A stretch of 26,689 nt of DNA, from positions 1 through 26,689 of the IMG/VR virus record IMGVR_UViG_3300048131_000237; one strand, written 5' to 3'. Position 1 is the stretch's first letter; each line of letters starts with the position of its first letter. The translations under genes and the position numbers were made by a program. Shown piece after piece: positions 7,534-26,420 of this stretch. The stretch comes from a virus. The notes under the pieces are model-generated. The model did no database searches and was not told where the DNA came from. It saw only the letters and a program-made list of their open reading frames with translations.

Positions 7534-7744
7534 TATGTTAATGTCACAAGCGGTTGCTGAAAGAAGTAAAGCAATACTTACTTTAAATTTATTAAGTGAA
7601 CACCCAGCTGGAATTGGAGACCATTCAACTGGAGATTTTTATAATAATGCTGAAGAAGCATTATCTGCTTTAGTAGATGCAGATGATAAAATTGATACTT
7701 TAAATAAATATTTTACACCACCAAAACAAGAAGTCTATGGGTGA
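7514..7744 (+). CDS. Small acidic protein of unknown function
   Basis: The 76-residue product is acidic and mostly helical (ELFDMLMSQAVAERSKAILTLNLLSEH, then NNAEEALSALVDADDKIDTLNKYF). It overlaps the glycosyltransferase upstream by 20 bases and the next gene by eight, so it is translated from the same message. I do not recognise a domain. Two helices joined by a short loop could form a dimerising hairpin, but no function follows from this. Confidence 0.72.
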   Translation: MKEELFDMLMSQAVAERSKAILTLNLLSEHPAGIGDHSTGDFYNNAEEALSALVDADDKIDTLNKYFTPPKQEVYG

Positions 7745-8168
7745 TATAATATCAAAAGCATTTGAATTAGAAGAAGAAGCTAAATTAAAAGGTATGAGTG
7801 ATAGAGAGATTATGGATGCAAAAAATCCAGATGCAGCAGCAGTTAGAAAATTTGAAAAAGATTATCCTGAATTATCTCAAGAATTTAGGGAAATACAAAA
7901 TGAAATGTATGAAATGTTTGCTCGTAAACATCTTGATTATGGTCTAAATAATATCGCTTTAGGAGGAGATTTGACTAATAGTGATGATAAAAAGTTTTCA
8001 CTTACAGGTTTAGCTATTAGATTAACTGATAAAATTAGTAGATTAAAAAATTTACTTATTAATGGTAAAAACTTTGTTAAAGGCGAAGGAATGGAGGACA
8101 CGTTTATTGATATAGCTAATTATGGGATAATTGGTTTATTAGTAGGACGTGATAAATGGAAAAAATAA
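7737..8168 (+). CDS. DUF1599/Nmad1-like (nucleotide modification associated) protein
   Basis: The 143-residue product has the segment EMYEMFARKHLDYGLNNIAL (about 56-75), followed by GLAIRLTDKISRLKNLL (about 90-106) and DTFIDIANYGIIGLLV (about 120-135). A K-x-x-DYG segment, a helix with RLxDKxxRLxNL and a final D-IANY-I helix are what I associate with DUF1599 (nucleotide modification associated domain 1), an all-helical family related in style to MazG-type proteins. That family was named from its presence near phage base-modification genes; its biochemistry is not settled. It overlaps the upstream gene by eight bases. MazG-like pyrophosphatase activity is the main alternative. Confidence 0.62.
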   Translation: MGDIISKAFELEEEAKLKGMSDREIMDAKNPDAAAVRKFEKDYPELSQEFREIQNEMYEMFARKHLDYGLNNIALGGDLTNSDDKKFSLTGLAIRLTDKISRLKNLLINGKNFVKGEGMEDTFIDIANYGIIGLLVGRDKWKK

Positions 8169-10831: not shown

Positions 10832-12117
10832 TGAATAAACCAGTTTTTGTAATAAGTTGCCCTTTTGACACCTACTCCGGTTATGGTGCGCGTGCTAGAG
10901 ATGTAGTTAAAGCGATAATTAGTACCGGTAAATACGATGTAAAATTAATGGCTCAACGTTGGGGTTCAACAACTTGGGGTTTTTGTAAAGATCACCCTGA
11001 ATGGGAGTATTTAAACAACCACAGACTCCCTGAAAATAAACTTACAGCTAAACCTGATATTTGGATGCAAATTACCATTCCAAACGAATTTCAAGCAGTA
11101 GGAAATTATAATATAGGATGTACCGCAGGTATTGAATCTAATCTATGCAAACCAGAATGGATTGAGGGTTTAAATAGAATGGATATGAATTGGGTTTCAT
11201 CTAATTTTGCAAAACAAACTTTTGAGGTAACTACGTTTGAAAAGCAAAATAAACAAACAAAACAAAAAGAAGGTGAATTAAAATTAGAAAAACCTATTGA
11301 AGTTGTTTTTGAAGGAGCAAATTTAGATATCTATAAACACATTTCACCTAAAGATATTAAAACAATTGACTTAAGTGAAATTAAAGAATCATTTTGTTAT
11401 TTGTTTGTAGGGCATTGGATACAAGGTTCATTTGGTCATGATAGAAAAAATGTAGGTAAAATGATTAAAGCATTTTATGAAACATTTAAAGGCCCAAATA
11501 AACCAAAACCCGCTTTAATTCTAAAAGCATCTGTAGGAGTATCTTCTTATATTAGTAGAGATGAAATATTAAAACGAATTAAAAACATTCGTAAAACAGT
11601 TAATGCTACTACTTTACCTAACATTTATGTTTTAAATGGGGAATTTAGTGATCAAGAAATGAATGAATTATACCACCATCCTAAAGTAAAATCTATGATT
11701 AGTTTTACTAAAGGAGAGGGATATGGCAGACCATTACTTGAATTCAGTCTAACAGGTAAACCTATTATTGCTTCTAATTGGTCAGGTCATACTGATTTCT
11801 TAAAACCCTCATTTAGTACATTAATTGGTGGTGAGCTAGAAAACGTAGATGCAAGTGCAGCTAATGATTGGTTAATTAAGGAATCAAAATGGTTTAAACC
11901 AAATGATGGTGAAATGGGTCGTTCGTTAAAAGATGTTTATAAAAAATATAAACAATGCTTAGTTAAATCTAAACAACAAAAGAATTTTAGTAAATCTAGG
12001 TTTAGTTATAATAAAATGGAAGAATTAATAGCAAGTATCCTAGAAGCAAATATTCCAGATTTTCCTAAACAAGTAGAATTAACATTACCTAAATTAAATC
12101 TACCTAAATTAAAATAA
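10831..12117 (+). CDS. Glycosyltransferase, GT4-like (group 1), second copy type
   Basis: The 428-residue product is another GT-B enzyme, starting PVFVISCPFDTYSGYGARARDVV, with a Gly-rich acceptor loop at about 16-22. The donor-side domain has SFTKGEGYGRPLLEF, whose E296 and E304 fit the E-x7-E motif, followed by GKPIIASNWSGHTDF. It differs clearly from the upstream enzyme, so the pair is not a simple recent duplication. It is linked to both neighbours by one-base overlaps, so the three genes form one operon. The middle section (about 135-160) is Lys/Gln-rich and probably a surface loop. Donor and acceptor are unknown. Confidence 0.87.
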   Translation: MNKPVFVISCPFDTYSGYGARARDVVKAIISTGKYDVKLMAQRWGSTTWGFCKDHPEWEYLNNHRLPENKLTAKPDIWMQITIPNEFQAVGNYNIGCTAGIESNLCKPEWIEGLNRMDMNWVSSNFAKQTFEVTTFEKQNKQTKQKEGELKLEKPIEVVFEGANLDIYKHISPKDIKTIDLSEIKESFCYLFVGHWIQGSFGHDRKNVGKMIKAFYETFKGPNKPKPALILKASVGVSSYISRDEILKRIKNIRKTVNATTLPNIYVLNGEFSDQEMNELYHHPKVKSMISFTKGEGYGRPLLEFSLTGKPIIASNWSGHTDFLKPSFSTLIGGELENVDASAANDWLIKESKWFKPNDGEMGRSLKDVYKKYKQCLVKSKQQKNFSKSRFSYNKMEELIASILEANIPDFPKQVELTLPKLNLPKLK

Positions 12118-12554
12118 TGGCTTACGATAATTTAATAGAATGCACACGTTGTGGTTCAGATGCATGTTATGTATCTGAAGTAACTAAAGATGTTAAAATA
12201 GAACTATGTTATGGGTGTGGTTTCCAATCTAATTCTGTAATGACAGTTGATAGTCAATTTTTGAATGAACAATTAGAATTACTCCCAGATATCTATAAAG
12301 CACTAATAGGTGAAGAAGAATCAGGTAAAGTATGGATGCCTTCATTTCATAATGTAGAAGGAAAAGGAATGGTATTTGCTGATGGTTCAAACCCTGAAAA
12401 TTGGAAATGGGGGGCTGTTAAACATGTTAAAGTACCTAAAAAAGAAAGAAAAAAATACAAGAATGCTAAATATAGAGCAGACATGTCTACAATAAAACAT
12501 TTTGAAGAACGTGATTTTATGGATGCCCTATCTTATATTAAAGTAATACCATGA
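12117..12554 (+). CDS. Zinc-ribbon protein of unknown function
   Basis: The 145-residue product has a four-cysteine zinc ribbon at its start: C9-x2-C12 (CTRC) and C31-x2-C34 (CYGC). The remainder contains MDALSYIKVIP at the end and a basic stretch KVPKKERKKYKNAKYRAD in the middle. I know similar short ribbon proteins from large marine phages, but not their role. A ribbon plus a basic stretch is compatible with nucleic-acid or ribosome contact. It lies between sugar genes yet has no sugar-related motif. It overlaps the next small gene by four bases (ATGA). Confidence 0.7.
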   Translation: MAYDNLIECTRCGSDACYVSEVTKDVKIELCYGCGFQSNSVMTVDSQFLNEQLELLPDIYKALIGEEESGKVWMPSFHNVEGKGMVFADGSNPENWKWGAVKHVKVPKKERKKYKNAKYRADMSTIKHFEERDFMDALSYIKVIP

Positions 12555-12712
12555 AATTAGGAGATTTAGTAGAAAAAGTAATCCATATTATCACCTTAGG
12601 TCAAGGTAAAAAAATAGCAACTAAAATAGCTAAATTGCGAGGCAAAGAAGATTGTGGGTGTAATAGAAGAAAAAATAAATTAAATAAGCTAGGAAAAAAT
12701 ATAAAATTATGA
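12551..12712 (+). CDS. Small basic protein with a DCGC motif
   Basis: A 53-residue gene runs from the ATG at 12551 to the TGA at 12710-12712, with ATGA-type overlaps at both ends. The product has a hydrophobic helix (KLGDLVEKVIHIITLGQGKK) and then AKLRGKEDCGCNRRKNKLNK. I recall similar small proteins, with a KIATKIAKL helix and a DCGC-x-x-R box, in many marine phages, with no assigned function. The two cysteines are too few for a full zinc site in a monomer, but a dimer could form one. The double overlap argues that it is a real, translated gene. Confidence 0.72.
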   Translation: MKLGDLVEKVIHIITLGQGKKIATKIAKLRGKEDCGCNRRKNKLNKLGKNIKL

Positions 12713-13533
12713 CAAAGTTTAAAGTTGGAGTTATAGGTAACGGATTTGTTGGGGAAAGTCAAGCATTTGCTTTTTCACCTACAACTGACTTAAGAATTTA
12801 TGATATAGATCCTAACAAAGCATCCCACACAAAAGAAGAATTAGATGAATGTGATTTTATTTTTGTATGTGTTCCTACACCTATGAAAAAGGATGGATCC
12901 CAAGACATTTCCTTTATAGAAAAAGTATTTGAGGAAGCAGTTGAAGGTCCTATTTATATTATTAAATCTACAATATTACCCGGTTCTACTAAAGAACTTC
13001 AAGATAAATATCCTAAATTATCAATTCTATTTTCCCCTGAATTTTTAACTGAACGTACAGCTAAATTAGATATGTTAACTCAAGCTAGAATTGTATTAGG
13101 TGGGGATAATAATTTAACAAGTAAAGCAGCTGAATTATTTGAACAGCGTTTTATGAATAAACATATTATTAAAACTGATTCAACTACAGCTGAATTAATT
13201 AAATATATGAATAATACTTTCTTTGCTACTAAAGTTAGTATTTTAAATGAATTTAAACTTTTATCTGATAAATTAGGAGCAAATTGGGAAGATGCATTAT
13301 ATGGATTTGCTTCAGATGGTAGAGTAGGTGATAGTCATTTGCATGTCCCAGGACCAGATGGTAGATTAGGATATGGTGGTACTTGTTTTCCTAAAGATGT
13401 TAATGCTTTAATAACATTAGCTAAAGAATTAGATACACCACTTAATACAATAGAAGGGGGATGGGCAACAAATTTAGTAGTGCGACCTGAAAAAGATTGG
13501 GAAGCAGATAAAGGTAGAGCAGTAAGTGAATAA
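12709..13533 (+). CDS. UDP-glucose/GDP-mannose dehydrogenase family, short form
   Basis: The 274-residue product has the NAD site GVIGNGFVG (7-15), VCVPTP (53-58), KSTILPG (86-92), SPEFLTERTA (109-118), the helix IKYMNNTFFATKVS (164-177) and the catalytic-cysteine motif GYGGTCFPKD (221-230, Cys226). These residues carry out the two-step oxidation of a nucleotide-sugar C6 alcohol to an acid. Typical family members are about 390-450 residues and end with a third, UDP-binding domain. Here the protein stops soon after the central dimer helix, so that domain is missing. No frameshift is visible: downstream DNA is another intact gene. Short phage forms may work with a substrate site completed by the dimer, or the protein may have a changed role. 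UDP-glucose is the likely but unproven substrate. Confidence 0.85.
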   Translation: MTKFKVGVIGNGFVGESQAFAFSPTTDLRIYDIDPNKASHTKEELDECDFIFVCVPTPMKKDGSQDISFIEKVFEEAVEGPIYIIKSTILPGSTKELQDKYPKLSILFSPEFLTERTAKLDMLTQARIVLGGDNNLTSKAAELFEQRFMNKHIIKTDSTTAELIKYMNNTFFATKVSILNEFKLLSDKLGANWEDALYGFASDGRVGDSHLHVPGPDGRLGYGGTCFPKDVNALITLAKELDTPLNTIEGGWATNLVVRPEKDWEADKGRAVSE

Positions 13534-13547
13534 ATAATATTTTAATT

Positions 13548-14429
13548 ATGAATATACTCATAGCAAATGGGGAAATGGAGAACTTTTTTGGGGGAACCCA
13601 AACTTGGACTATTACAATGGTAAAATTCTTAAGAGAATTAGGACATAATGTTCATTTTACTGGGGTAAATGGAAGAATACACCCCTCATTTCGTTCAGAA
13701 TATCAACCTTTAATTAATAGATATGATTTGCTAATAGCTAATGGTAACTTAGCCTTTAATAAATTCAAAAATATCTCCCCAATTAAGATTTTAATACTTC
13801 ACGGAATACTACCCCAGATGGAACAACCCGTTTCAGGAGCAGATATTCTTTTAGGTGTAAGTGAAGAAGTTGAAAATAATATCACTAAAAGGGGATTTAA
13901 GTGTGATGGTATTATTCGTAATCCCATTGATTTAGATAAATACACTACTACAAACCCAGTTAAAGAAATTAAAACTATAGGTTTTTTAGATAGAAGACGT
14001 AGATTTCCTTTTATTGAAGAGCTTTCAAATAGATTTAATGTAATCCAAATAGGTAATCCACCCACAACTCAAATTAAAGAAGAATTAGATAAATGTGATT
14101 TAGTTGTAGCTCGAGGAAGAGGAATATATGAAGCTATGTCATTAGCAAAAAATGTAATAGTATCAGGAAATAATTCTGGTAGAGGTGGAAAAACTGAGTG
14201 GATGGATGGGTTTGTTGATGATACAACTTTTTATATATATCGTGAAAATAATTGCAGCGGTAGAAGAATGAAAATAAATGTAACTAATGTAGATATATTC
14301 TGGGGGCAAATCCAAAAAGCTTCAGTAGAACAAGCCCAAAGTAATAGACTACTTATGGAAAAAAATAATGATGCTAGATTGATAGCTAAAGAATTATTAA
14401 AATATTATGAGGATTGCAATAATAAGTAG
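13548..14429 (+). CDS. Glycosyltransferase, GT4-like, compact
   Basis: The 293-residue product begins MNILIANGEMENFFGGTQTW and continues TITMVKFLRELGHNVHFTG, the standard N-terminal half of a GT4 enzyme with the GG loop after the first strand. The C-terminal half has IGFLDRRRRFPFIEEL at about 144-159 and ARGRGIYEAMSLAKNVIVSG near 188-207, where E195 would be the donor-binding Glu. It is shorter than most GT4 enzymes (350-400), mainly through a small N-domain. The start follows the dehydrogenase by 14 bases, and the end overlaps the next gene by 23 bases. Donor and acceptor are unknown. Confidence 0.8.
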   Translation: MNILIANGEMENFFGGTQTWTITMVKFLRELGHNVHFTGVNGRIHPSFRSEYQPLINRYDLLIANGNLAFNKFKNISPIKILILHGILPQMEQPVSGADILLGVSEEVENNITKRGFKCDGIIRNPIDLDKYTTTNPVKEIKTIGFLDRRRRFPFIEELSNRFNVIQIGNPPTTQIKEELDKCDLVVARGRGIYEAMSLAKNVIVSGNNSGRGGKTEWMDGFVDDTTFYIYRENNCSGRRMKINVTNVDIFWGQIQKASVEQAQSNRLLMEKNNDARLIAKELLKYYEDCNNK

Positions 14430-15135
14430 AGTATATAATGAAGAATCAATACTTCAAGAATTTTTAGACTATTATAGAAAAATGGCAACTGCCGGGTTCT
14501 TTTTTTATGATGATGGTTCTACAGATAATACTATTGATATTTTAGAAAATGATCCTGATGTAAAACATATTATTAAAGGTAATAGAATTAATGGAATAGA
14601 TTCCCATAACAACCAAAACCCCCAACGTAAGCAAATAATAGAAATAGCAAGAAAAACTATATCACCTGATGATTATTTTATGTTATTAGATGTAGATGAA
14701 TTTATAGAATTAAATTCTTCTTTAAATAATTTAACTGATGATTTGATATATCTTTCACTATTTGATATGTATATTACTGAAAAAGATAAAAATGAACATT
14801 GGACTAAACGCAAATATTTTGGACCAGAAGTACGTAACCTTGCATTTATAGTTAAAAATAAATCTTATATAACTTTAAAAAATGATAGAACTATAATTGC
14901 TAATGGTAGTTCTTCAAATCAAGGATTTGTAAAACATGTAGGAAAAGGAATTAGTATCCAATATTGGGAAAATAAATGTTCTCATTATTCTCAACCTCAT
15001 ATGCCCCCAAAATATAGATTTAAATGGGAAGCTAGAAAAGGAAAATCTATTCATATAAAATCGGATTTTAATAGACCTTTATATAAATGGGAAGATCTTA
15101 AATTAAATAAAGATAAATGGGTAACAATAGATTAA
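14407..15135 (+). CDS. Glycosyltransferase, GT2/GT92-like
   Basis: The 242-residue product starts MRIAIISRVYNEESILQEFLDYYRK, the usual opening of a GT2 enzyme whose first strand ends in xNEE. FYDDGSTDNT (33-42) gives the first Asp pair, and LLDVDEFIEL (93-102) the metal-binding DxD-like motif. The pattern, including conserved Trp and His near the C-terminal half (CSHYSQPHMPPKYRFKWE), also resembles the GT92/DUF23 group. It is an inverting, cytoplasmic transferase with no membrane helix. Its start overlaps the previous gene by 23 bases, so it is translationally coupled. Confidence 0.82.
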   Translation: MRIAIISRVYNEESILQEFLDYYRKMATAGFFFYDDGSTDNTIDILENDPDVKHIIKGNRINGIDSHNNQNPQRKQIIEIARKTISPDDYFMLLDVDEFIELNSSLNNLTDDLIYLSLFDMYITEKDKNEHWTKRKYFGPEVRNLAFIVKNKSYITLKNDRTIIANGSSSNQGFVKHVGKGISIQYWENKCSHYSQPHMPPKYRFKWEARKGKSIHIKSDFNRPLYKWEDLKLNKDKWVTID

Positions 15136-15148
15136 AAAATAATATAAA

Positions 15149-15859
15149 ATGAAAGTAGGAATAACTATAACATCCCATCGTTCAAAAGAAATTAGACCTA
15201 ATGGTGGTGAATTATTAGATGGTTTTTTTGAATCTTTTCGTAAAAGTAATTTCCAATACAATTATTGCATCTATGTTTCAGATAATGCTTCAACACTATC
15301 CTATAATTACCCTACAGATTTAAATTTAAAAGTAATTAATATAGAAGACCAATCTATTAATGGACTAACCGGTGCTTGGAATTTAGGAATAGATACAGCT
15401 TATAATGATGGATGTGATATTATTTGGAATTTTAATGATGATTTGGAGTTAAATTCTTCTATTAATACATTTATTAAACATATAACTTTAACACCTGATT
15501 TTCCATTTGGGATATATGGTCCTTTATCCAATGAAGGAGGAGTAGATGCCCCTAATAATAGTCCAGGTCCTAAAGAAGGAATAAGAAAATTAAGAGTATC
15601 TCCTGGGAGTATGTTTGAAGTACCAAATGGGTTTAGTTTTGCTCTTACTAAAGAAGTATATGAAACTTTTAGATTTAAACAAAACGAATTTTTTCCTTTA
15701 AGTCATGCTATGGATGGAAGAGATGGAAAATGGGGTGGACAAGAAGGATATTTTTCGTTGATTTCAAATAATAAAATTAGCTTTTATTTAATTAATGAAT
15801 GTTGGATTAAACATTATAAATTTAAAGCTTGGGAACAAGCAAGAGACCTATATAGATGA
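15149..15859 (+). CDS. Glycosyltransferase, GT2-like
   Basis: The 236-residue product has a first strand GITITSHRSKEI, then YCIYVSDNAST (39-49), where the Asp would contact the nucleotide, and WNFNDDLELN (93-102), where the Asp pair would bind the metal. Between them NGLTGAWNLGIDTAY is the usual G-x-W-N-x-G helix of GT2 enzymes. A Trp/His-rich end (CWIKHYKFKAWEQ) completes the acceptor side. No membrane segment is visible. The stop overlaps the next start by four bases. Confidence 0.82.
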   Translation: MKVGITITSHRSKEIRPNGGELLDGFFESFRKSNFQYNYCIYVSDNASTLSYNYPTDLNLKVINIEDQSINGLTGAWNLGIDTAYNDGCDIIWNFNDDLELNSSINTFIKHITLTPDFPFGIYGPLSNEGGVDAPNNSPGPKEGIRKLRVSPGSMFEVPNGFSFALTKEVYETFRFKQNEFFPLSHAMDGRDGKWGGQEGYFSLISNNKISFYLINECWIKHYKFKAWEQARDLYR

Positions 15860-16539
15860 TTACAGTAATTAACGCTGCCTTTTTTGGTAATGAAAGACAA
15901 ATAGATAGAATTGTCGATCAAAATCCTTATGATAATGTTGAATACGTTATGTATACTAACAAACCTAATAAGGCACAAGATACTATTTGGAATGTAAAAG
16001 AAGTTAAAATTGAAAATATGGGTCTTAGAATGGCGGCGCGCCAAGTTAAAACCCAACCCCATATCTACCACCCAGATAGTGATTATTGGCTTTGGATAGA
16101 TGCTAGTATGAAAATTAATGTTGACCCTAATATATTAGTTGAAAAACATTTAGCTAGGTTTGATATTTGTGCTATGCCTCATCCTGAAAGAAATAATTGG
16201 TGGGAAGAAGCAAATGCTATTTTAGGATATAGGATGGATACTAAAGAAAATGTTCAAAGGGGGATTGATAAGTATTTAAGTGAAGGTTTAGCACCAACTC
16301 AATTATGGGAAACTGGATGTTTATTAAGACGTAATACATCTAAAGTAATTGATTTTAATAATATATGGTGGAATGAAATCCAAACTAATAGTATTAGAGA
16401 TCAAATTAGTGTTCAATATGCTTCCTGGAAATCAGGAGTACATATAAACAGTTTCCCAGGAACTAATAGTATGAACCCACTTCGATTTGAAAAAAAACGA
16501 TGGTTACCTCAATGGAATGAAATAACAAGAGCATGGTAA
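15856..16539 (+). CDS. DUF616-like (TOD1/MUCI70) glycosyltransferase
   Basis: The 227-residue product reads YVMYTNKPNKAQDTIWNV near residues 30-47, then LRMAARQVKTQPHIYHPDSDYW (57-78), WLWIDASMKI (78-87), FDICAMPHPERNNWWEEA, and LWETGCLLRRNTS. The order AR-x-x-K-x-x-PH, then D-x-WIDAS, then xxHPxR, is what I associate with DUF616, a GT-A-like domain in plant and bacterial polysaccharide enzymes. WIDAS would supply the metal-binding Asp. It overlaps its neighbours at both ends (four and seven bases), so it is an integral part of the glycan operon. Substrate is unknown. Confidence 0.75.
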   Translation: MITVINAAFFGNERQIDRIVDQNPYDNVEYVMYTNKPNKAQDTIWNVKEVKIENMGLRMAARQVKTQPHIYHPDSDYWLWIDASMKINVDPNILVEKHLARFDICAMPHPERNNWWEEANAILGYRMDTKENVQRGIDKYLSEGLAPTQLWETGCLLRRNTSKVIDFNNIWWNEIQTNSIRDQISVQYASWKSGVHINSFPGTNSMNPLRFEKKRWLPQWNEITRAW

Positions 16540-17222
16540 TAATTTATAGAATATCAGACGCAGGTTATAATAAAGTAAAACCTGATTATATTAATAACGA
16601 AGTATGTTTAGCTAATGCTGTTAAGCATTTTGATAGTAATAACTTTATCGTTATAGCAGATAATGTATCTGAGGAAACTTACTTAATGATATGTAAGTAT
16701 GTTAAATCTTCTAATATCATGAAAGTATCTGTTGGTCATGGTGCTGGTACTTTTAACCTTGCATTAGACAAAGCATTAACAATGGATGATGATGAAATCA
16801 TTTATTTTATTGAAAATGATTATTTACATAAACCAAATAGTCAAGAGGTTTTAAAAGAAGGTTTTGATTTAGGAGCTTCTTTCGTATCTTTATATGACCA
16901 TCCTGATAAGTATTTACCTCCTGAAAAAGGTGGTAATCCATATTGTCAAGGTGGAGCTGAAGATACTAGGGTATATTTAACGAACTCTGTACATTGGAAA
17001 ATAACAAATAGTACTACAATGACATTTGCTGCTAAAGTAAAAACATTAAAAGAAAACGAATCAGTTCTTAGAGAGTATACTAGTAGTACTCACCCAAATG
17101 ATTTCCAAATGTTTCTAGATTTAAGATCTAAAAATAAATTATTAGTAACCCCTATACCAGGATATTCTACACATGGAGAAACAGCTTGGCTATCACCCTT
17201 AACTGATTGGAGTAAGATATGA
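16533..17222 (+). CDS. Probable glycosyltransferase, GT-A-like
   Basis: The 229-residue product lacks the classic GT2 opening but has a Rossmann-like order: NFIVIADNVSEETYLMI (37-53), a helix with FNLALDKALTM, and IIYFIENDYLHKP (89-101), where END sits at the place of a DxD motif. The later SSTHPNDFQMFLDLR and YSTHGETAWLSPLTDW offer conserved-looking His and Trp residues near the expected acceptor site. I infer a transferase from these and from its place between two clear ones. It overlaps both neighbours by four to seven bases. Confidence 0.6.
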   Translation: MVIIYRISDAGYNKVKPDYINNEVCLANAVKHFDSNNFIVIADNVSEETYLMICKYVKSSNIMKVSVGHGAGTFNLALDKALTMDDDEIIYFIENDYLHKPNSQEVLKEGFDLGASFVSLYDHPDKYLPPEKGGNPYCQGGAEDTRVYLTNSVHWKITNSTTMTFAAKVKTLKENESVLREYTSSTHPNDFQMFLDLRSKNKLLVTPIPGYSTHGETAWLSPLTDWSKI

Positions 17223-17842
17223 AAATAAGTTACGCTATAACAGTCTGTAATGAATTTGTAGAGATACAAAAGCTATTACCTTTTCTTTTAGAAAATAAAA
17301 GAGATGAAGACGAAATTACTATTTTATTTGATGTTCAAGGTGGAACAGATAAGGTAGAAGAATATTTAAGAACAGAATCAGTTAATAATGAATTTAATTG
17401 GATTAAGAGTAATTTCAAAGGGCATTTTGCTGATTGGAAAAATTACCTAACTACATTATGTTCAGGTGATTATATTTTCCAAATAGATGCAGATGAAATA
17501 CCTAATTGGTATCTAATTAACTGTCTCCCCGAGATATTAGAAAGCAACCCAGATAATGAAGTTTATTTAGTTCCTAGAATAAATACAGTGACAGGTTTAA
17601 CCCAAGAGCACATTACTAAATGGAGATGGAATGTAAATGAAAATGGATGGGTTAACTGGCCTGATTATCAATGGCGTATTTGGAAAAATAAACCTGAAAT
17701 TAAATGGGTTAATAAGGTTCATGAAAGATTAGAAGGATTTAAAACTTATTCAACCTTACCCCAAGAACCAGAATTTAGCCTTAAACATCCAAAAGATATT
17801 AAACGTCAAGAAAAACAAAACTCTTATTACGATACATTATGA
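17219..17842 (+). CDS. Glycosyltransferase, GT2-like (WaaE/SunS style)
   Basis: The 207-residue product starts SYAITVCNEFVEIQKLLPFL, a typical GT2 first strand and helix. ADWKNYLTTLCSGDYIFQID (71-90) leads into the DADE motif (90-93). RWNVNENGWVNWPDYQWRIW and KWVNKVHERLEGF follow, resembling the WaaE-type group where the enzyme adds glucose or heptose to LPS core, and the SunS-type group that acts on peptides. The C-terminus is short, ending soon after the LKHPK segment. Coupled to its neighbours by four-base overlaps. Confidence 0.82.
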   Translation: MKISYAITVCNEFVEIQKLLPFLLENKRDEDEITILFDVQGGTDKVEEYLRTESVNNEFNWIKSNFKGHFADWKNYLTTLCSGDYIFQIDADEIPNWYLINCLPEILESNPDNEVYLVPRINTVTGLTQEHITKWRWNVNENGWVNWPDYQWRIWKNKPEIKWVNKVHERLEGFKTYSTLPQEPEFSLKHPKDIKRQEKQNSYYDTL

Positions 17843-18639
17843 TTAGTTTAATTATTCCTACATATAGAAATCCTAGTTATCTAGATATTTGTCTTAAATC
17901 AGCTATTGAGGGTCAAACTACTGATAATGAAATTATAGTTGTAGTTGATGGTTATGTAGATGAAAGTCAGACAATACTAGATAAATATAAAGATAAAATT
18001 AAAGTATTACCTTTAGATGAAAATAGAGGTATGCAAACTGCTCTTAATTTAGGGGTATTTAACTCTAGTAATGAAAAAATACTTATTATTAATGATGATA
18101 ATGTATTATGCCCTGAATGGGATACTATAGCTAGTGAGGTTAAAGAACGTTCTGTATTAACTATTAACCAAATTGAACCTACAGGCCCAGGTATATTTAA
18201 TTTTCCAGTTAAAGATTTAGGTAAAACACCTGAACAATTTGACTATGATGGTTTTATTAAATACGAAAAAACATTAAGACAAGATAAATTAACCACAGAT
18301 GGGGGTATATTTCCGTTTGCAATATATAAAAAACAATATATGATTGTAGGTGGATTTGATACCATGTACCAATCCCCTTTTATCTGTGACTGGGATTTTT
18401 TCCTAAAACTAGATTTAAACAATATAGGAATGTCTAGAACACACAAAGGACATTTTTATCACTTTGGTAGTGCTGCTACTAAAAATAGAACTGATGGTGA
18501 TCAAATAAAATTTAAAGCAAGTGAACAACCTGCTGCTGAAGTATTTATGTATAAATGGGGGATTAGTCCTCAATTATTTGAAAATAATTCACATAACCCT
18601 AAAAATAACCAAATAATTAAAGGTATAAAATATGAGTAA
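17839..18639 (+). CDS. Glycosyltransferase, GT2 family
   Basis: The 266-residue product is a clear GT2: MISLIIPTYRNPSYLDICLK at the start, EIIVVVDGYVDES (31-43), ENRGMQTALNLGVFN (61-75), and the metal motif LIINDDNVL (82-90), with NDDN at 85-88. The DGGIFPFAIYKKQYMIVGGF and FICDWDFFLKL segments match the acceptor-side GGF and DWDF boxes of the family. No membrane helix is present, so it is not a processive membrane synthase. It overlaps the epimerase gene by eight bases. Confidence 0.88.
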   Translation: MISLIIPTYRNPSYLDICLKSAIEGQTTDNEIIVVVDGYVDESQTILDKYKDKIKVLPLDENRGMQTALNLGVFNSSNEKILIINDDNVLCPEWDTIASEVKERSVLTINQIEPTGPGIFNFPVKDLGKTPEQFDYDGFIKYEKTLRQDKLTTDGGIFPFAIYKKQYMIVGGFDTMYQSPFICDWDFFLKLDLNNIGMSRTHKGHFYHFGSAATKNRTDGDQIKFKASEQPAAEVFMYKWGISPQLFENNSHNPKNNQIIKGIKYE

Positions 18640-19630
18640 AACAGTATTAATAACAGGTGTAGCCGGGCTATTAGGTAGTCGTTTAGCTGATTGGATAATT
18701 GAAACACAACCAGATACTACAGTAGTTGGAGTTGATGATTTAAGTGGAGGTTTTAAAGAAAACGTTAATCCAAAAGTAAAATTTTGGCAAATGAATTTAA
18801 TAGAACATCCTATTGAAAATATATTTGAAGCACATGACATAGATTATGTATTTCATTTTGCTGCTTATGCTGCTGAAGGATTATCTCCATTTATTCGTAC
18901 TTACAATTATGATAATAACTTAAAATCAACTGCACGCCTGGTTAATGAGTGTATTAAAAACGACGTTAAACGATTGGTATTTACGTCTACATTAGCAGTA
19001 TATGGCCATGGTTATGGTGGTATTTTTGATGAAAATCAACAACAATCACCAATTGATCCTTATGGAGTTGCAAAATATGCTTGTGAAATGGATATCCAAA
19101 TCGCAGGTGAACAACATGGGTTAGATTGGTGTATTATCAGACCACATAATGTCTATGGTATTAAACAAAATATTTGGGACAAGTATAGAAATGTATTAGG
19201 AATTTGGATGTTCCAACATTTAAATGGAATGGATATGACTATATTTGGTGATGGTGATCAAACCAGAGCATTTAGTTATATAGATGATTCATTAGAACCA
19301 TTATGGAATGCTGCAATTAGACCTGAAGCAAGTAAAGAAATAATTAACTTAGGTGGTATTAGAGAAATTTCAATAAATGAAGCAGCTCAAACTTTACAAG
19401 ATGTAATAGGTGAAGGTGAAGTAAAATACTTAGAAGCCAGACATGAAGTTAAACATTCAATACCTACATTCCAAAAATCAATCGATTTATTAGGATTTGA
19501 ACATAAAACTGATTTAAAAGAAGGTTTAACTGAAATGTGGAAATGGGCTCAAAATCAACCTATGCGTGAAAGATTTATATGGCCCTCATATGAATTAGAA
19601 AAGGGTATTTATTCCTTTTGGAAAAAATAG
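18632..19630 (+). CDS. NAD-dependent epimerase/dehydratase, GalE-like
   Basis: The 332-residue product is an extended short-chain dehydrogenase. The NAD site is TGVAGLLGS (8-16), the acidic residue that selects NAD is in VVGVDDLSGG (31-40), and the catalytic residues appear as TSTLAVYG (118-125, Ser/Thr119-120) and Y144-x3-K148 in DPYGVAKYA. IIRPHNVYG and RAFSYIDD are the usual substrate-side boxes. The role is to change the nucleotide sugar used by the cassette, most likely a UDP-sugar 4-epimerase, though a dehydratase cannot be ruled out. It closes the long glycan operon; the next promoter lies across its stop codon. Confidence 0.9.
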   Translation: MSKTVLITGVAGLLGSRLADWIIETQPDTTVVGVDDLSGGFKENVNPKVKFWQMNLIEHPIENIFEAHDIDYVFHFAAYAAEGLSPFIRTYNYDNNLKSTARLVNECIKNDVKRLVFTSTLAVYGHGYGGIFDENQQQSPIDPYGVAKYACEMDIQIAGEQHGLDWCIIRPHNVYGIKQNIWDKYRNVLGIWMFQHLNGMDMTIFGDGDQTRAFSYIDDSLEPLWNAAIRPEASKEIINLGGIREISINEAAQTLQDVIGEGEVKYLEARHEVKHSIPTFQKSIDLLGFEHKTDLKEGLTEMWKWAQNQPMRERFIWPSYELEKGIYSFWKK

Positions 19631-21711: not shown

Positions 21712-21862
21712 ATTAAAACAAATAGTACTGACTAGAGAAGAATGGCAAGATGCTATGAAGCTTCCCACACCTCATAGGAATAAGAAGCGATACTACAGAA
21801 AAGAAAAACATAAAAAGGGTTGGAGTTCCAACCCTTCTTTCGTATATTTATGGCATAAATAG
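21689..21862 (+). CDS. Small basic protein whose 3' end holds a terminator and promoter
   Basis: A 57-residue frame runs from the ATG at 21689 to the TAG at 21860-21862. The product has QIVLTREEWQDAMKLPTP (about 11-28), then a basic run HRNKKRYYRKEKHKKG. The TREEW...LPTP...NKKRY style resembles small phage proteins I have met without function. Its last 16 or so codons coincide with the hairpin at 21815-21836 and the -7 box at 21843, so those residues are dictated by the regulatory DNA. A terminator inside an open frame is unusual, and the last part may be an extension without functional weight. Confidence 0.55.
   Translation: MKSKTNAKLKQIVLTREEWQDAMKLPTPHRNKKRYYRKEKHKKGWSSNPSFVYLWHK
21815..21840 (+). 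terminator. Strong intrinsic-terminator-like hairpin overlapping the next promoter
   Basis: AAGGGTTGG at 21815-21823 pairs perfectly with CCAACCCTT at 21828-21836 around the loop AGTT; CTTT follows, and an A-run precedes the stem. This is the best hairpin in the window. The TTGG of its left arm is also the upstream box of the next promoter. Because the T-run is short, termination may be partial. Confidence 0.75.
21819..21851 (+). promoter_or_regulatory. Promoter family copy before the helicase gene
   Basis: GTTGG at 21819-21823 and TATATTTAT at 21843-21851 are 24 bases apart start to start. TTTCG precedes the -7 box as in other copies. The helicase ATG is 24 bases further on. The upstream box is the left arm of the terminator-like hairpin. 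Confidence 0.65.
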
Positions 21863-21874
21863 TAAAAAAAAATA

Positions 21875-23413
21875 ATGGTTATATCTCAATTTAAAAAATA
21901 TGGTTTTTATGATTACCAAATAGAAGCTGCCGAAGCTACAAATAATCATAGTAAAGGTATAGTAGTAATGCCCACAGGAACAGGTAAAACTTTTGTTCAA
22001 GCTGGTATTATTGCTGAGGATATTAAAAACAATCCCGGATTTAGAATATATGTTGTTAATGCTCCTCGTATTATGCTTTCTTATCAACTATTAGAAGAAG
22101 TATTCAAATTTAATATTAATAATAATATTGATGCTCGTTATATGGCAGTCCATTCCGGCAGAATGGAACAAAAAGATTTAGACCAATATCGTTCTCAATA
22201 TTCTGAATTTGATTATTCACAAATTGATTCTACAACTTCCCCTATTGCTGTAAATCAAATGATTAGTAAAGCAAAGAAAGCTAAACAACCACTAATTTTC
22301 TTTAGCACTTATAATTCAGCTATTAGAATTGAACAAGGTAGAGGTAAAGAAAAAATTAATATAATTCTAAATGATGAAGCTCATTATTTGGTTCAAGAAC
22401 GTTTTAATACTGATTTTAATCAGATGGAAACAGAACGTAAATATTTTTTCACAGCTACTACTAAAGAAACCCCATCTGATGAGGGATTAGGAATGAATAA
22501 TGTAGAATTTTATGGTGAGAAAATTTATACAATGACTCCTTGGGAAGCTATTCAAAAAGGAAAAATTGTTCGTCCTAGAGTTCATATTGTTTCTACTAAT
22601 GAAGATAGAGTTATGACTCAAAATGATTTAGATAAAAACCTAGGTAGATTAGTTATAAATTCATTTAATGAGCATAGTAAATTACTTAAAAATGGTTTAA
22701 AAGCAAAAATGTTAATTGCTGCTTCTGGATTAAATGATATGAAAAGATTAATTGGGTCTGATGAAATTTTAGACTTTATTAATGATGGAGGTAAGTTTTT
22801 TGCTGTTGCTTCAGATCAAGAAGTAAACAATTATATTAATGGTAAAAGGGTTGCTCGTAGAGAGTTTCTTAAGCAATTACAAATTGATGGTGCTAACCCA
22901 AATCAAGAATTAATTGTTATCCATTATGATATTTTAACAGAAGGTATAGATGTTCCGGGTTTAACAGGTGTTTTATTTTTAAGAGATCAAAAGAAATCTA
23001 AATTTATCCAAACTTTTGGTCGTGTTGCTCGTTTAAATCGTTATGATAGAGATTTAATGAATAAAGGTGTTATTACTCCAAATGATTTAGATAAAATGAA
23101 CAAACCTTATGCTTGGATTATTATCCCAGCAATTAAAACTGAAGACACAGATAAATTAGCAAATCTTGAACACTTAGTTGCCGAACTTCGTGATTTTGGT
23201 TTTAACCCTGCTGAAGATATTGAGCCCAATGATAGAGGTAATGGAGATGGAGATGATGATAAAGATCCTATTGTACCAGAAGATAGTATTAGAGGAGTAG
23301 TTGGTGAAATAGTTGAAGAGTATAACCACCAGATTGAACAAGAACGTATTGCTAATTTGACATGGGGGGAAAAATTAAATGGAAAGATTATTGAAGAGAA
23401 TTTGGTACTTTAA
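21875..23413 (+). CDS. SF2 DEAH-type DNA helicase (UvsW/ResIII-like)
   Basis: The 512-residue product has all main SF2 motifs: a Q-like start YGFYDYQIEAAEA, Walker A MPTGTGKT (32-39), motif II NDEAH (166-170), motif III FTATTKE (192-198), motif V TEGIDVPGL (355-363) and motif VI QTFGRVARLNR (379-389). Length and order fit T4 UvsW (about 500) and also the helicase part of type I/III restriction enzymes. A Gly/Asp-rich acidic linker (about 448-465) and a helical tail end the protein. It should translocate on or unwind branched or duplex DNA. A promoter directly precedes it, and an Mrr-like nuclease lies two genes downstream, which keeps both the repair and restriction readings open. Confidence 0.88.
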   Translation: MVISQFKKYGFYDYQIEAAEATNNHSKGIVVMPTGTGKTFVQAGIIAEDIKNNPGFRIYVVNAPRIMLSYQLLEEVFKFNINNNIDARYMAVHSGRMEQKDLDQYRSQYSEFDYSQIDSTTSPIAVNQMISKAKKAKQPLIFFSTYNSAIRIEQGRGKEKINIILNDEAHYLVQERFNTDFNQMETERKYFFTATTKETPSDEGLGMNNVEFYGEKIYTMTPWEAIQKGKIVRPRVHIVSTNEDRVMTQNDLDKNLGRLVINSFNEHSKLLKNGLKAKMLIAASGLNDMKRLIGSDEILDFINDGGKFFAVASDQEVNNYINGKRVARREFLKQLQIDGANPNQELIVIHYDILTEGIDVPGLTGVLFLRDQKKSKFIQTFGRVARLNRYDRDLMNKGVITPNDLDKMNKPYAWIIIPAIKTEDTDKLANLEHLVAELRDFGFNPAEDIEPNDRGNGDGDDDKDPIVPEDSIRGVVGEIVEEYNHQIEQERIANLTWGEKLNGKIIEENLVL

Positions 23414-23433
23414 TATTTATTTCGTATATTTAC
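23401..23433 (+). promoter_or_regulatory. Promoter family copy at the helicase 3' end
   Basis: TTTGG at 23401-23405 lies inside the last codons of the helicase, and TATATTTAC at 23425-23433 just after its stop, spaced 24 bases. TTTCG precedes the -7 box. The next ATG is 17 bases downstream, with AAAGG at 23444-23448 as a likely ribosome site. Confidence 0.7.
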
Positions 23434-23449
23434 ACTTTAAATAAAGGTT

Positions 23450-23977
23450 ATGAATCTAAATGAATTTGAGAAGAATATAGAAAAAGAATTAGAATTAAAA
23501 ATGCTAAATAAGAATAATACTCCAATTCTAGATCGTTTAGAAATACATTTAGAACAATTAGATAAAGAGTATAATTTAGCTACAATGCTCAATCCCCAAA
23601 ATTTAAAAAGTGAATTATATCTTAGTATGCTTTACCAAATAGTGTATCCTACAAAAATAAAAAATAAATTTTATATAAAATATCAAGGTGAGCAAATTGA
23701 AGGAGAAACAGATAGAGAAAAAGTCCAAAATTTAGTTATTAGTATAGGAACAAAAAATATTCAAAAACTAAAAAGTTATAGTAAGTTTCTTTATAAAAAA
23801 AATATTGGAGAGGTTGTAGGAAATGCCTATAAAGTAGTTGATAATAACCATTCTTTTGATACTTCATTTGGTGGAGTAGGGTCTAGCTCTAAAATTAAAG
23901 GATTTATTAAAGAAATTAAAGACATTTTAAATTTAGATGTTGAAATTATATATGAAAAAACGTTTAGCTATAATTAA
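23450..23977 (+). CDS. Unknown protein between helicase and DUF6884-like gene
   Basis: I do not recognise this 175-residue protein. The first half is helical and charged (MNLNEFEKNIEKELELKM, then RLEIHLEQLDKEYNLATML). The middle has short beta-like segments (KFYIKYQGEQIEGETDREK), a Lys-rich section, and a Gly/Ser-rich turn FGGVGSSSK before a final helix. It starts after its own promoter and its end overlaps the next gene by about 26 bases, so the two are coupled. It has no nuclease, helicase or membrane pattern that I can see. Base composition matches that of its neighbours. Confidence 0.75.
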   Translation: MNLNEFEKNIEKELELKMLNKNNTPILDRLEIHLEQLDKEYNLATMLNPQNLKSELYLSMLYQIVYPTKIKNKFYIKYQGEQIEGETDREKVQNLVISIGTKNIQKLKSYSKFLYKKNIGEVVGNAYKVVDNNHSFDTSFGGVGSSSKIKGFIKEIKDILNLDVEIIYEKTFSYN

Positions 23978-24671
23978 TTGTAAATCTAAAAAGAAAAAAT
24001 ATAAATGTACATCTGAAGAGATGTATTCTGTATCTTTTCAATTTAGATCTCAAATTAAATTTATTAAAGAATATTATGATGATTATGCTATTTTATCTAC
24101 AAAGTATGGTATAATTTATCCTACTTCTATAATAGAACCATATGAAATTAGTTTAGCTAAAGGTTCTCGTTTAAAGTCTACTAATTCTTTATCTGATTTA
24201 GAGTTAAAAGAATGGAGTAGTAGTGTAAAACAACAATTAGAATCATTAAGTAAAGTTTATGATATAATAGATTTACACATATCAAATCAATACCTAAATC
24301 CTATTAAAGAAATATTATCAAATCCTATTTACACCCATATTAAACAACCTGTTAATCCAGGATTAGTAAAAAACAGATATGAGGAAATACACCAGAAACT
24401 AATTAATAAAAAACCTATAAATTTAAATGAAATAGGAGAAAAAAGACCTAGTCTAGATCCAGAAATAGAAAGATGGTGGTACCATCCTGAATATGAACCT
24501 TTTTTTGGTTTTGCACGACATTTAAAAAAAGAATACCCTCATGTAGATGAAGGAAATGCTAGTAGGGTAAGTAGGGGTTTAAATCCACATACTTGTGGGT
24601 GGGTTACAGATAAAAAAATATTAAATAATTTATATAAAACAGAAAAAGGTCAATATAGATTAAAAAAATAA
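23952..24671 (+). CDS. DUF6884/YaaA-like protein with a C-terminal DNA-binding-like repeat
   Basis: I choose the ATG at 23952 because the product then opens KKRLAIINCKSKKKK, the short first strand with a Cys/Ser-Lys-Lys turn typical of the family; an in-frame ATG at 23937 would add five residues. SEEMYSVSFQFRSQIKFIK, YAILSTKYGIIYPTSIIEPY (45-64) and YEISL follow, matching the ILSAKYGLL-x-P-x-x-x-I-x-PYD pattern of DUF6884 and of the related YaaA family. The C-terminal 75 residues (FFGFARHLKKEYPHVDEG, then NASRVSRGLNPHTCGW) resemble the helix-turn-helix repeats found next to homing nucleases and restriction enzymes. Length is 239 residues. The family is linked by others to nucleic-acid modification; the function here is open. 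Confidence 0.6.
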   Translation: MKKRLAIINCKSKKKKYKCTSEEMYSVSFQFRSQIKFIKEYYDDYAILSTKYGIIYPTSIIEPYEISLAKGSRLKSTNSLSDLELKEWSSSVKQQLESLSKVYDIIDLHISNQYLNPIKEILSNPIYTHIKQPVNPGLVKNRYEEIHQKLINKKPINLNEIGEKRPSLDPEIERWWYHPEYEPFFGFARHLKKEYPHVDEGNASRVSRGLNPHTCGWVTDKKILNNLYKTEKGQYRLKK

Positions 24672-24679
24672 TAAAGGTT

Positions 24680-25285
24680 ATGACACATTCATTTCAATAT
24701 AATGCCCACAATTTATTAGAACTATTTGAGGGAACAACTCGATTTTCAGGTCGTAATGGTTGGAAATCTAAAATGGAGGCACAATCTACTTTAAATGAAA
24801 ATAAATACCCACGTTTAAATTATGTAGGGGATGCATTTGAGTTTTTTGTAGAACTAATGTTTGAAATTTTAGGTCCAATTAAAGAATGGGGTGGGATATA
24901 TGAATACCAACCTCAAGAAGAATATGATAATGGGGTAGATGCTATTTGCAAAAACTGGGATGGTGAACAATCGGTAGTCCAAATTAAATATAAAAGGGAT
25001 AGTGAACGTTTACTTACTGCTAATGCTGATCACTTAGGTAATATGATTAAGGAAGCAACATTAAAATACAGAATTAGTCCTCATGCTCCTAATAGTAAGG
25101 AAACTACTAAATACTTTGTTATTACCACAGGTAAGTCTTTACATCATTATACTAATGATGAATTCTTTTTAAATAATGTTAAATGTATTGGATGGGATGA
25201 TTTATGTGGTATGCTAGATAATAATAAAGGATTTTGGATTAAAGCTGAGCAATTAATCCAAAAACTAGTAAAAGAAAACCATTAA
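24680..25285 (+). CDS. Mrr-like restriction endonuclease-fold protein
   Basis: The 201-residue product carries a PD-(D/E)XK core: a helix with Glu54 (DAFEFFVELMFEIL), then DNGVDAICKN with Asp87 and VVQIKYKRD with Gln101 and Lys103, so the catalytic order is E, D, QxK, as in Mrr-type enzymes. Later strands (YFVITTGKSL) and the helix WDDLCGMLD fit the rest of the fold. The N-terminal 45 residues may bind DNA or another subunit. It lies eight bases after the DUF6884-like gene with AAAGG before its ATG and no promoter of its own, so it belongs to the helicase block. It is likely a DNA endonuclease; the target (modified, unmodified or branched DNA) is unknown. Confidence 0.8.
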   Translation: MTHSFQYNAHNLLELFEGTTRFSGRNGWKSKMEAQSTLNENKYPRLNYVGDAFEFFVELMFEILGPIKEWGGIYEYQPQEEYDNGVDAICKNWDGEQSVVQIKYKRDSERLLTANADHLGNMIKEATLKYRISPHAPNSKETTKYFVITTGKSLHHYTNDEFFLNNVKCIGWDDLCGMLDNNKGFWIKAEQLIQKLVKENH

Positions 25286-25289
25286 TTTA

Positions 25290-25322
25290 TTTGGTTTCCC
25301 TAATTATCTTTCGTATATTTAC
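25290..25322 (+). promoter_or_regulatory. Promoter family copy after the nuclease
   Basis: TTTGG at 25290-25294 and TATATTTAC at 25314-25322 are spaced 24 bases, with TTTCG before the -7 box. This is the best match in the window. The next ATG is 29 bases downstream behind TAAAGGTT, the same leader ending as at 23450 and 24680. Confidence 0.7.
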
Positions 25323-25350: not shown

Positions 25351-25599
25351 ATGAGTCAAAAAGTAAGTGATTTTAAAGTAGGTGATGAGTTTATGGTTGA
25401 TGGTTTAGCACCAAATGGTGAACTTGTTAAAACTAAAGCCAAATTAATTTCATATAATGGTATGAACAAATATGTTGTTGAAAGTGATGGTATTACTGTT
25501 CTAACTGAAGGTAATGATAGTGCTTACCCCATTATAGATGATATGGTTTATGAAAATGAAATTGATGAGTGGGTTGATATAAACGAATACAAGTATTAA
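25351..25599 (+). CDS. Small acidic protein, possible beta-barrel fold
   Basis: The 82-residue product begins VSDFKVGDEFMVDGLAPNGE and has strands KTKAKLISYNGMNKYVVESD and GITVLTEG. The pattern of a KVGDEF turn followed by alternating strands suggests a small SH3-like or OB-like barrel, but I cannot name a family. It is acidic, with a Tyr/Asp-rich tail (ENEIDEWVDINEYKY). It is the first gene of a transcript with a strong promoter and leader. The next gene starts two bases after its stop. Confidence 0.7.
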   Translation: MSQKVSDFKVGDEFMVDGLAPNGELVKTKAKLISYNGMNKYVVESDGITVLTEGNDSAYPIIDDMVYENEIDEWVDINEYKY

Positions 25600-25600
25600 T

Positions 25601-26035
25601 ATGGCACTTTGGGAATTTTCAGCACCTAATAAGCATGGGATGATGCGTACTAGGATTGTTTATACTGAAGGTAGTTTAAATACTAGTCCTAAATTTGGTT
25701 CACCCCAAATTGCAAGGAGATTTAAGTATAAGCATACTCACCCTATTTATCCACCTATGATTTGGAAACATGAGGGTAAAACATATTTAATGCCCAAGTG
25801 GAAAGAGGTAATGGAGGGTACTACACTTGATGATATAGAATGGGTTAAACCTAAACCTAAAGTTGCAGTTAAACAAGAACCTATTGTAATTACTTCTGCT
25901 AGTTCATCTAGTGATAAAACTTATACCACAACATATTACCCCGATTCAGGTAAGTTCTGGTGTGATTGTCCTGGAATGTGGAGAAGTGGAGGTAATTGTA
26001 AGCATGTAAAACAAATGAGAAAAGAAAATGAGTAG
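25601..26035 (+). CDS. SWIM zinc-finger-like protein
   Basis: The 144-residue product ends with FWCDCPGMWRSGGNCKHVKQ: C121-x-C123, then C133-x-H135. This is the CxCxnCxH signature of SWIM domains, which bind zinc and contact DNA or partner proteins and are found next to SWI2/SNF2 helicases, MuDR transposases and phage proteins. The N-terminal part (ALWEFSAPNKHGMMRTRI) is not recognised; a Ser-rich linker (about 99-105) joins the two. It overlaps the next gene by eight bases. A DNA-binding or partner-binding role is likely. Confidence 0.78.
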   Translation: MALWEFSAPNKHGMMRTRIVYTEGSLNTSPKFGSPQIARRFKYKHTHPIYPPMIWKHEGKTYLMPKWKEVMEGTTLDDIEWVKPKPKVAVKQEPIVITSASSSSDKTYTTTYYPDSGKFWCDCPGMWRSGGNCKHVKQMRKENE

Positions 26036-26420
26036 AGGTAGACCAAGTGAAAGTATAGAAAGATTAGATAAGTGGACATTAGATACTACTGATTATGATG
26101 GTTCAAAATCAATAATTAAATTTGATAGATCTAAATCAACTAAAGGCCCATATTCAATTGAACATATACCAACTAAAGGATATAGACAACCAAAACCAGA
26201 TATAGATCAAAGAATGTATGGTAAGTCTCCTGTTGTAATGGTATTTAAAACATCAAATCGTTCAAATGCTAAAACTAAAATAAAGGTATTTAGAAAAAAT
26301 ATTGATTATATTATTAGTGCTAAAAAACTACCAGGTGTGCCCGAAAAAGCAGAAATACTTGAGTTAGCAGTAGGAAAATCATATATTGACAAGTATAAAC
26401 AAAAATATAACTTAAGTTAG
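26028..26420 (+). CDS. Unknown basic 130-residue protein
   Basis: I do not recognise the family. The product is basic, with strand-like segments (KSPVVMVFKTSNRSNAKTK), a stretch KIKVFRKNIDYIISAKKLPG, and a C-terminal helix EKAEILELAVGKSYIDKYKQ. It starts inside the SWIM gene's last codons, so the two are coupled. The sequence is compatible with a small nucleic-acid-binding protein. The stop is followed by an AT-rich gap with a copy of the 14-base element. Confidence 0.68.
   Translation: MSRGRPSESIERLDKWTLDTTDYDGSKSIIKFDRSKSTKGPYSIEHIPTKGYRQPKPDIDQRMYGKSPVVMVFKTSNRSNAKTKIKVFRKNIDYIISAKKLPGVPEKAEILELAVGKSYIDKYKQKYNLS

What the first reader, a model, noticed from the sequence alone, without database searches (positions are those of the whole stretch)
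21875..25285. Helicase, unknown, DUF6884-fusion and Mrr-like nuclease as a possible interference module
An SF2 helicase, an uncharacterised 175-residue protein, a DUF6884-like protein with a DNA-binding-like tail, and a PD-(D/E)XK nuclease lie together with promoters at 21819 and 23401. The mix of translocase plus nuclease plus a modification-sensing-type family looks like a compact restriction-like system, perhaps against competing phages, host DNA or plasmids. This is the most system-like unit in the window. A repair/recombination role (UvsW-like) is the plain alternative.
Basis: inference. Interest (0 to 1): 0.6.

Follow-up and report, generated by a model that had tools for sequence, protein, structure and literature searches.

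The report
Phage restriction-like unit missing its methylase
A virus of Bacteroidetes-type bacteria carries a DNA motor and a DNA-cutting enzyme that in dozens of other phages travel with a DNA methylase, as in a bacterial restriction system; here no methylase is found and a probable DNA-base-modification or base-recognition protein sits between motor and cutter, suggesting a changed way of telling own from foreign DNA.

Summary
The four genes are real, co-directional and at the stated coordinates. Two of them, the SF2 helicase and the PD-(D/E)XK nuclease, are a conserved pair: of 47 nuclease loci found elsewhere, 44 have the helicase and 46 an N6-adenine methyltransferase nearby; the exceptions are cut by contig ends. 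The helicase is not UvsW: in a tree it nests inside the nuclease/methylase-linked clade, and true UvsW is a separate branch. In the relatives the set is a three-part restriction-modification-like module (motor, nuclease, methylase with a swapping target-recognition half), arranged like a type ISP enzyme split into separate genes. The window differs: no methylase in 24.7 kb upstream or 1.4 kb downstream. Between helicase and nuclease lie an orphan 175-residue protein and a DUF6884 (DpdC/YaaA-type) protein, found in none of the other 47 loci. The nearest full-length relative of this DUF6884 lies in a phage DpdA-QueC-QueD 7-deazaguanine cluster. A 31-base promoter-like element occurs three times in the window, only around this unit. 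Best reading: a phage restriction-like effector whose methylase has been lost or moved, with DUF6884 perhaps handling the self mark. The restriction-like part is well supported; the DUF6884 role is inference.

The parts
21820..21850 (+). promoter-like element copy 1 (TTGG-N19-TATATTTA, core TTTCGTATATTTA) before the helicase; overlaps a terminator-like stem
   Evidence: 3 copies in window, 0 of 100 shuffles reach 3
21812..21839 (.). bidirectional intrinsic-terminator-like stem-loop separating the unit from upstream genes
   Evidence: pattern match only
21875..23413 (+). SF2 (ResIII/DEAH) helicase-like motor, 512 aa, motifs intact; nests in nuclease/methylase-linked clade
23402..23432 (+). promoter-like element copy 2, before the 175-aa/DUF6884/nuclease genes
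23450..23977 (+). 175-aa protein of unknown family, no relative found in any collection searched
23952..24671 (+). DUF6884 (YaaA/DpdC-type) protein with extra C-terminal tail; listed ORF starts 23937; CxxxK kept, LSAxxG is LSTxxG here
   Evidence: motifs from PMC11701544
24465..24671 (+). C-terminal tail of the DUF6884 protein, shared with L064 and L065 homologues only (putative DNA-binding, inference)
24680..25285 (+). PD-(D/E)XK (restriction-endonuclease fold) nuclease, 201 aa, phrog_7683; D87, Q101, K103 invariant
25291..25321 (+). promoter-like element copy 3, marks the start of the next transcription unit
25351..26420 (+). three small genes (82 aa; 144 aa with weak SWIM-type match; 130 aa) behind copy 3; possibly same regulon, membership uncertain
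   Evidence: two have weak homologues downstream of the module in L011

Best explanation
The unit is a phage-borne restriction-like effector: an ATP-driven SF2 DNA motor plus a PD-(D/E)XK nuclease that cut DNA lacking the phage's own mark (host chromosome, plasmids or rival phages). It descends from a three-part motor/methylase/nuclease module, laid out like a type ISP restriction enzyme broken into separate genes, that is conserved in cyanophages and large phages. In this lineage the N6-adenine methylase has been lost or moved, while motor and nuclease stay intact. Steps shown here: gene content, conserved pairing with a methylase elsewhere, intact catalytic motifs, nuclease fold, tree position, shared promoter-like element. 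Steps inferred: that the proteins act together, that they cut unmarked DNA, and that the DUF6884 protein (a family that includes DpdC, a 7-deazaguanine DNA-modification enzyme) writes or reads the protecting mark.
For: 47 nuclease loci from phages, IMG/VR and Bacteroidota MAGs: 44 with helicase, 46 with methylase; missing ones lie at contig ends (L005, L016, L056). The helicase is 45-49% identical to module helicases and nests inside their clade (98/89) with methylase-bearing lineages both inside and outside it, so methylase absence is derived. T4-type UvsW is a separate gene in the cyanophages (E 1e-72 to 1e-92) and a separate branch at 100/100. Methylases carry GEVMTP, a motif I-type DxxxGxGxF and NPPY; their C-terminal halves fall to 14-27% identity where helicases keep 57-75%, yet stay 57-65% among L009, L010 and L057, although the L010 helicase is closer to L006 (75%, C-terminal half 20%): the mark of target-recognition swapping. 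Gene order nuclease-helicase-methylase in L011 and L045 equals the domain order of type ISP enzymes (PMC4666363). Nuclease fold. DUF6884: nearest full-length homologue lies in a DpdA, DUF6884, QueC, QueD cluster (L064); 17 of 80 DUF6884 phage loci have DpdA and 23 some 7-deazaguanine gene, against none of the 47 nuclease loci. The nearest isolate found by GroEL, Flavobacterium phage immuto, encodes DpdA, QueD, QueE, FolE and QueF. The promoter-like element ties helicase and [175 aa, DUF6884, nuclease] together.
Against: The window is a 26.7 kb fragment ending 1.4 kb past the nuclease; a methylase may lie beyond it (in L030 it is 5.6 kb away). DUF6884 and the 175-aa protein occur in none of the other nuclease loci. 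No DpdA in the window. DUF6884 proteins also occur away from 7-deazaguanine genes (57 of 80 loci, within the stretch held). Closest-to-type-ISP in PDB is not specific: a non-module cyanophage helicase family gives the same top hits. The nuclease gave no sequence match to Mrr or LlaGI. Cleavage and defence are untested.
Confidence: 0.62

Rival explanations
1. An ordinary member of the phage motor/methylase/nuclease restriction-modification module: the methylase is present elsewhere in the genome, and DUF6884 and the 175-aa gene are unrelated insertions between helicase and nuclease.
For: Every other locus with room has a methylase; its distance varies from 0 to 5.6 kb; DUF6884 and the 175-aa gene are never in the module elsewhere. 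The window is a fragment.
Against: No methylase by sensitive profile search in 24.7 kb upstream and 1.4 kb downstream. DUF6884 and nuclease lie 8 bases apart behind one promoter-like element, as for genes used together.
Confidence: 0.25
2. Recombination/repair or host-genome breakdown machinery: the helicase acts like UvsW on branched DNA and the nuclease as a resolvase or exonuclease, without self/non-self discrimination.
For: PD-(D/E)XK folds include Holliday resolvases and EndoMS, which appear among weaker Foldseek hits; SF2 helicases are common in phage replication.
Against: The helicase is outside UvsW. The pair travels with a methylase whose specificity half swaps, which repair does not need.
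Confidence: 0.1
3. DUF6884 acts in DNA repair or as a lesion/base-flipping protein (as suggested for B. subtilis YfjM) that feeds damaged DNA to the motor and nuclease.
For: The Pfam 2024 paper reports YfjM among interactors of DNA lesions and a predicted base-flipping complex (PMC11701544).
Against: The nearest homologue sits in a 7-deazaguanine modification cluster.
Confidence: 0.1

Closest known systems
Type ISP restriction-modification enzymes (LlaGI, LlaBIII)
   Same: Parts list of the related loci (restriction-fold nuclease, SF2 motor, N6-adenine methylase, recognition part) and, in L011 and L045, the same order; LlaBIII and LlaGI are the best PDB hits of the helicase profile (6e-12, 7e-11).
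   Different: Separate genes, not one chain; no methylase found in the window; nuclease has no sequence match to the type ISP nuclease; helicase likeness not specific.
Unnamed phage module phrog_7683 nuclease + phrog_3689/phrog_4376 methylase + phrog_16-type helicase (S-CAM7, ACG-2014f, Bellamy)
   Same: Homologous nuclease (25-33% identity) and helicase (31%), adjacent genes.
   Different: Methylase split in two and always present there; DUF6884 and 175-aa genes absent.
Dpd (7-deazaguanine DNA modification and restriction) islands and phage DpdA systems
   Same: DUF6884 is the domain named for DpdC (PMC11888242) and is linked to DpdA in 17 of 80 phage loci.
   Different: No DpdA found in the window; here DUF6884 sits with an unrelated motor and nuclease.
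UvsW-type phage helicases
   Same: SF2 helicase core.
   Different: Separate, fully supported branch; the cyanophages carry both genes.
Jumbo-phage Mom-REase fusions (PMC7824862)
   Same: The idea of a phage marking its own DNA and attacking unmarked DNA.
   Different: Different mark enzyme, no fusion, ATP-dependent motor present.

Membership tests
Type ISP restriction-modification enzyme | single polypeptide with nuclease, ATPase, coupler, methylase and recognition domain | tested here: not met
   separate ORFs in the window and all relatives
Type ISP restriction-modification enzyme | Mrr-family nuclease domain | tested here: inconclusive
   PD-(D/E)XK fold and invariant D87/Q101-x-K103, but no sequence match to Mrr or LlaGI
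Type ISP restriction-modification enzyme | SF2 helicase-like ATPase with intact motifs | tested here: met
   same top hits for a non-module helicase family
Type ISP restriction-modification enzyme | N6-adenine methylase with target-recognition domain | tested here: not met
   not found in the window by profile search; met in 46 of 47 related loci
Type ISP restriction-modification enzyme | translocation and cleavage on collision at unmodified sites | not testable with these tools
   needs biochemistry
Phage motor/methylase/nuclease module (phrog_7683 type) | phrog_7683-type nuclease adjacent to the clade helicase | tested here: met
Phage motor/methylase/nuclease module (phrog_7683 type) | linked N6-adenine methylase (fused or split) | tested here: not met
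   the fragment leaves a distant copy possible
UvsW | helicase groups with T4 UvsW | tested here: not met
   100/100 split; T4 UvsW finds other genes
Dpd 7-deazaguanine system | DUF6884/DpdC-type protein | tested here: met
   PF21818 1e-16; weak direct DpdC hit 0.008
Dpd 7-deazaguanine system | DpdA DNA-guanine transglycosylase in the same genome | tested here: inconclusive
   none in the 26.7 kb fragment; present in the related phage immuto
BREX / DISARM / Dnd | signature proteins of these systems | tested here: not met
   for the four proteins PADLOC gives only generic helicase and DUF6884 hits and no hit for the nuclease; TIGR04095 far below its cut-off (58 of 600)

The most novel reading that the evidence does not exclude
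A phage restriction-modification-like system in which methylation has been replaced by a 7-deazaguanine-type DNA base mark handled by a DUF6884 protein, while the motor and nuclease of a split type ISP-like module are kept as the cutter.
Probability: 0.25. Interest if true: 0.82.

Novelty: new variant of a known kind. Interest (0 to 1): 0.6.

Why it matters
It gives a testable function to phage protein families listed as unknown (phrog_7683, phrog_4376), shows that cyanophages and large phages carry a restriction-modification-like module with exchangeable specificity, and points to a variant in which the self mark may have changed chemistry. That would make it testable whether phages use restriction against hosts, plasmids and rivals, and how a nuclease can survive loss of its methylase.

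Tried and rejected
UvsW role for the helicase: rejected by tree and by separate UvsW genes. DUF6884 as part of the conserved module: rejected, 0 of 47. Helicase likeness to LlaGI as specific evidence: set aside after the control. Single-protein scans of viral contigs with nuclease, helicase, DUF6884 and the 175-aa protein found nothing; alignment queries were needed. Fold search of the DUF6884 model gave no significant PDB match, not even YaaA among the 50 best. Nuclease and methylase profiles gave no significant PDB sequence hits. Helicase in plasmids: none. Generic promoter scan: below chance. Papers naming the module: none found in the held library; absence there is weak evidence.

Full report
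What is there. The window is an IMG/VR virus fragment of 26,689 bases. Its GroEL is 59% identical to that of Flavobacterium phage immuto, and 14 genes are shared, largely in the same order (PDDEXK, two glycosyltransferases, DksA-like, HNH). So the host is probably a Bacteroidetes (Flavobacteriia), which is inference from phage kinship. The four ORFs are at the stated coordinates. Helicase motifs are intact. The nuclease has no Pfam family but is phrog_7683; its AlphaFold2 model (pLDDT 90) matches PD-(D/E)XK enzymes, EcoO109I first at 6.6e-4; G50-D51, E54, D87, Q101 and K103 are invariant in 26 homologues. A 31-nt element, TTGG-N19-TATATTTA, occurs three times, only at 21820, 23402 and 25291, before the helicase, before the 175-aa/DUF6884/nuclease run and before the next gene. 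It resembles the Bacteroidetes -33/-7 promoter layout (own knowledge).

Conserved pair and third partner. tblastn in phage records placed the nuclease next to a helicase and a DNA methylase in S-CAM7, ACG-2014f and Bellamy. An alignment-based scan of IMG/VR gave 40 loci and further scans added a few, plus two Bacteroidota MAG contigs. Of 47 loci, 44 have the helicase and 46 a methylase within 5.6 kb; the three without helicase and the one without methylase are contig ends. Several loci are near-copies, so the independent number is smaller, but they span cyanophages, three contigs of 195-372 kb and other contigs. The methylase is one ~500-residue protein with GEVMTP, DxxxGxGxF and NPPY, or is split into an NPPY half (phrog_3689) and a motif I half (phrog_4376). 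Its C-terminal half is hypervariable and appears exchanged between phages, as expected of a target-recognition part.

Not UvsW. The window helicase is 45-49% identical to module helicases of its own clade and about 34% or less to the rest. In a 40-sequence tree it nests inside the non-cyanophage module clade (98/89); T4 and cyanophage UvsW form a separate branch (100/100). T4 UvsW finds different genes in the same cyanophage genomes.

What differs in the window. Profiles of all three methylase forms find nothing credible in the window or in L005, the nearest relative (nuclease 85% identical, 60 synonymous against 30 replacement codon differences, which suggests purifying selection). L005 begins 25 bases before its nuclease, so its helicase side is unknown. 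Because methylase-bearing lineages lie both inside and outside the window's position in the tree, absence here is a derived state, unless the methylase has moved out of the fragment. In the gap sit the 175-aa orphan and DUF6884, both absent from all 47 loci.

DUF6884. The Pfam 2024 paper describes a YaaA-like fold with CxxxK and LSAxxG motifs and possible base flipping (PMC11701544); another paper gives DUF6884 as the domain of DpdC (PMC11888242). The window protein keeps CxxxK and has LSTxxG. Its closest full-length relative, with the same tail, lies in L064 between DpdA, a second DUF6884, QueC and QueD. Of 80 DUF6884 phage loci 17 carry DpdA and 23 any 7-deazaguanine gene, against 0 of 47 nuclease loci by the same test. 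Immuto has DpdA, QueD, QueE, FolE and QueF but no DUF6884. This makes a base-mark role plausible, not shown.

Mechanism. Most likely the motor loads on unmarked DNA, translocates, and the nuclease cuts, as in type ISP enzymes (PMC4666363), while own DNA is spared by a mark. Which mark is used in this phage is unknown; DUF6884 is the only candidate next to the unit. It resembles type ISP systems in parts but is not a member: it is not one polypeptide and no methylase was found.

Limits. Fragmentary genome; host inferred; helicase-LlaGI likeness not specific (control); no activity data; no scan of unbinned metagenomes.

Noticed in passing
L057:12536-18212 (Bacteroidota MAG contig JAIFNC010000057.1): Within 3 kb of a methylase-nuclease-helicase module lie a CRISPR-like array (9 copies, 65-66-base spacing), a Cas3-like HD helicase and a Cas6 gene; its helicase is 84% identical to that of a 372 kb viral contig, so this may be a large phage carrying both.
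   Followed up: partly
L001, L002, L003 and most of L011-L044 (cyanophage-type loci): The module methylase is split into two genes: an NPPY/recognition half (phrog_3689) and a short motif I half (phrog_4376, 'unknown function'), often flanking the nuclease.
   Followed up: partly
L058:9406-16413 (Flavobacterium phage immuto): A 7-deazaguanine DNA-modification gene set (QueD, QueE, FolE, DpdA, QueF) close to GroEL in the nearest isolate found.
   Followed up: yes
window 7737-8168: DUF1599, 'nucleotide modification associated domain 1' (1e-8), another hint at modified nucleotides in this phage.
   Followed up: no
L005:1173-3817: DNA polymerase-like sequence (by eye) appears split over two overlapping ORFs (571 and 310 aa) directly before the sliding clamp.
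   Followed up: no
window 9392-19630: Long run of glycosyltransferase, UDP-sugar dehydrogenase and epimerase genes, partly syntenic with immuto.
   Followed up: no
window 25601-26420 and L011:14407-17122: Homologues of the 144-aa (SWIM-type tail) and 130-aa genes behind the window's nuclease also lie downstream of the module in L011 (7e-5, 2e-7), hinting at a shared neighbourhood.
   Followed up: partly
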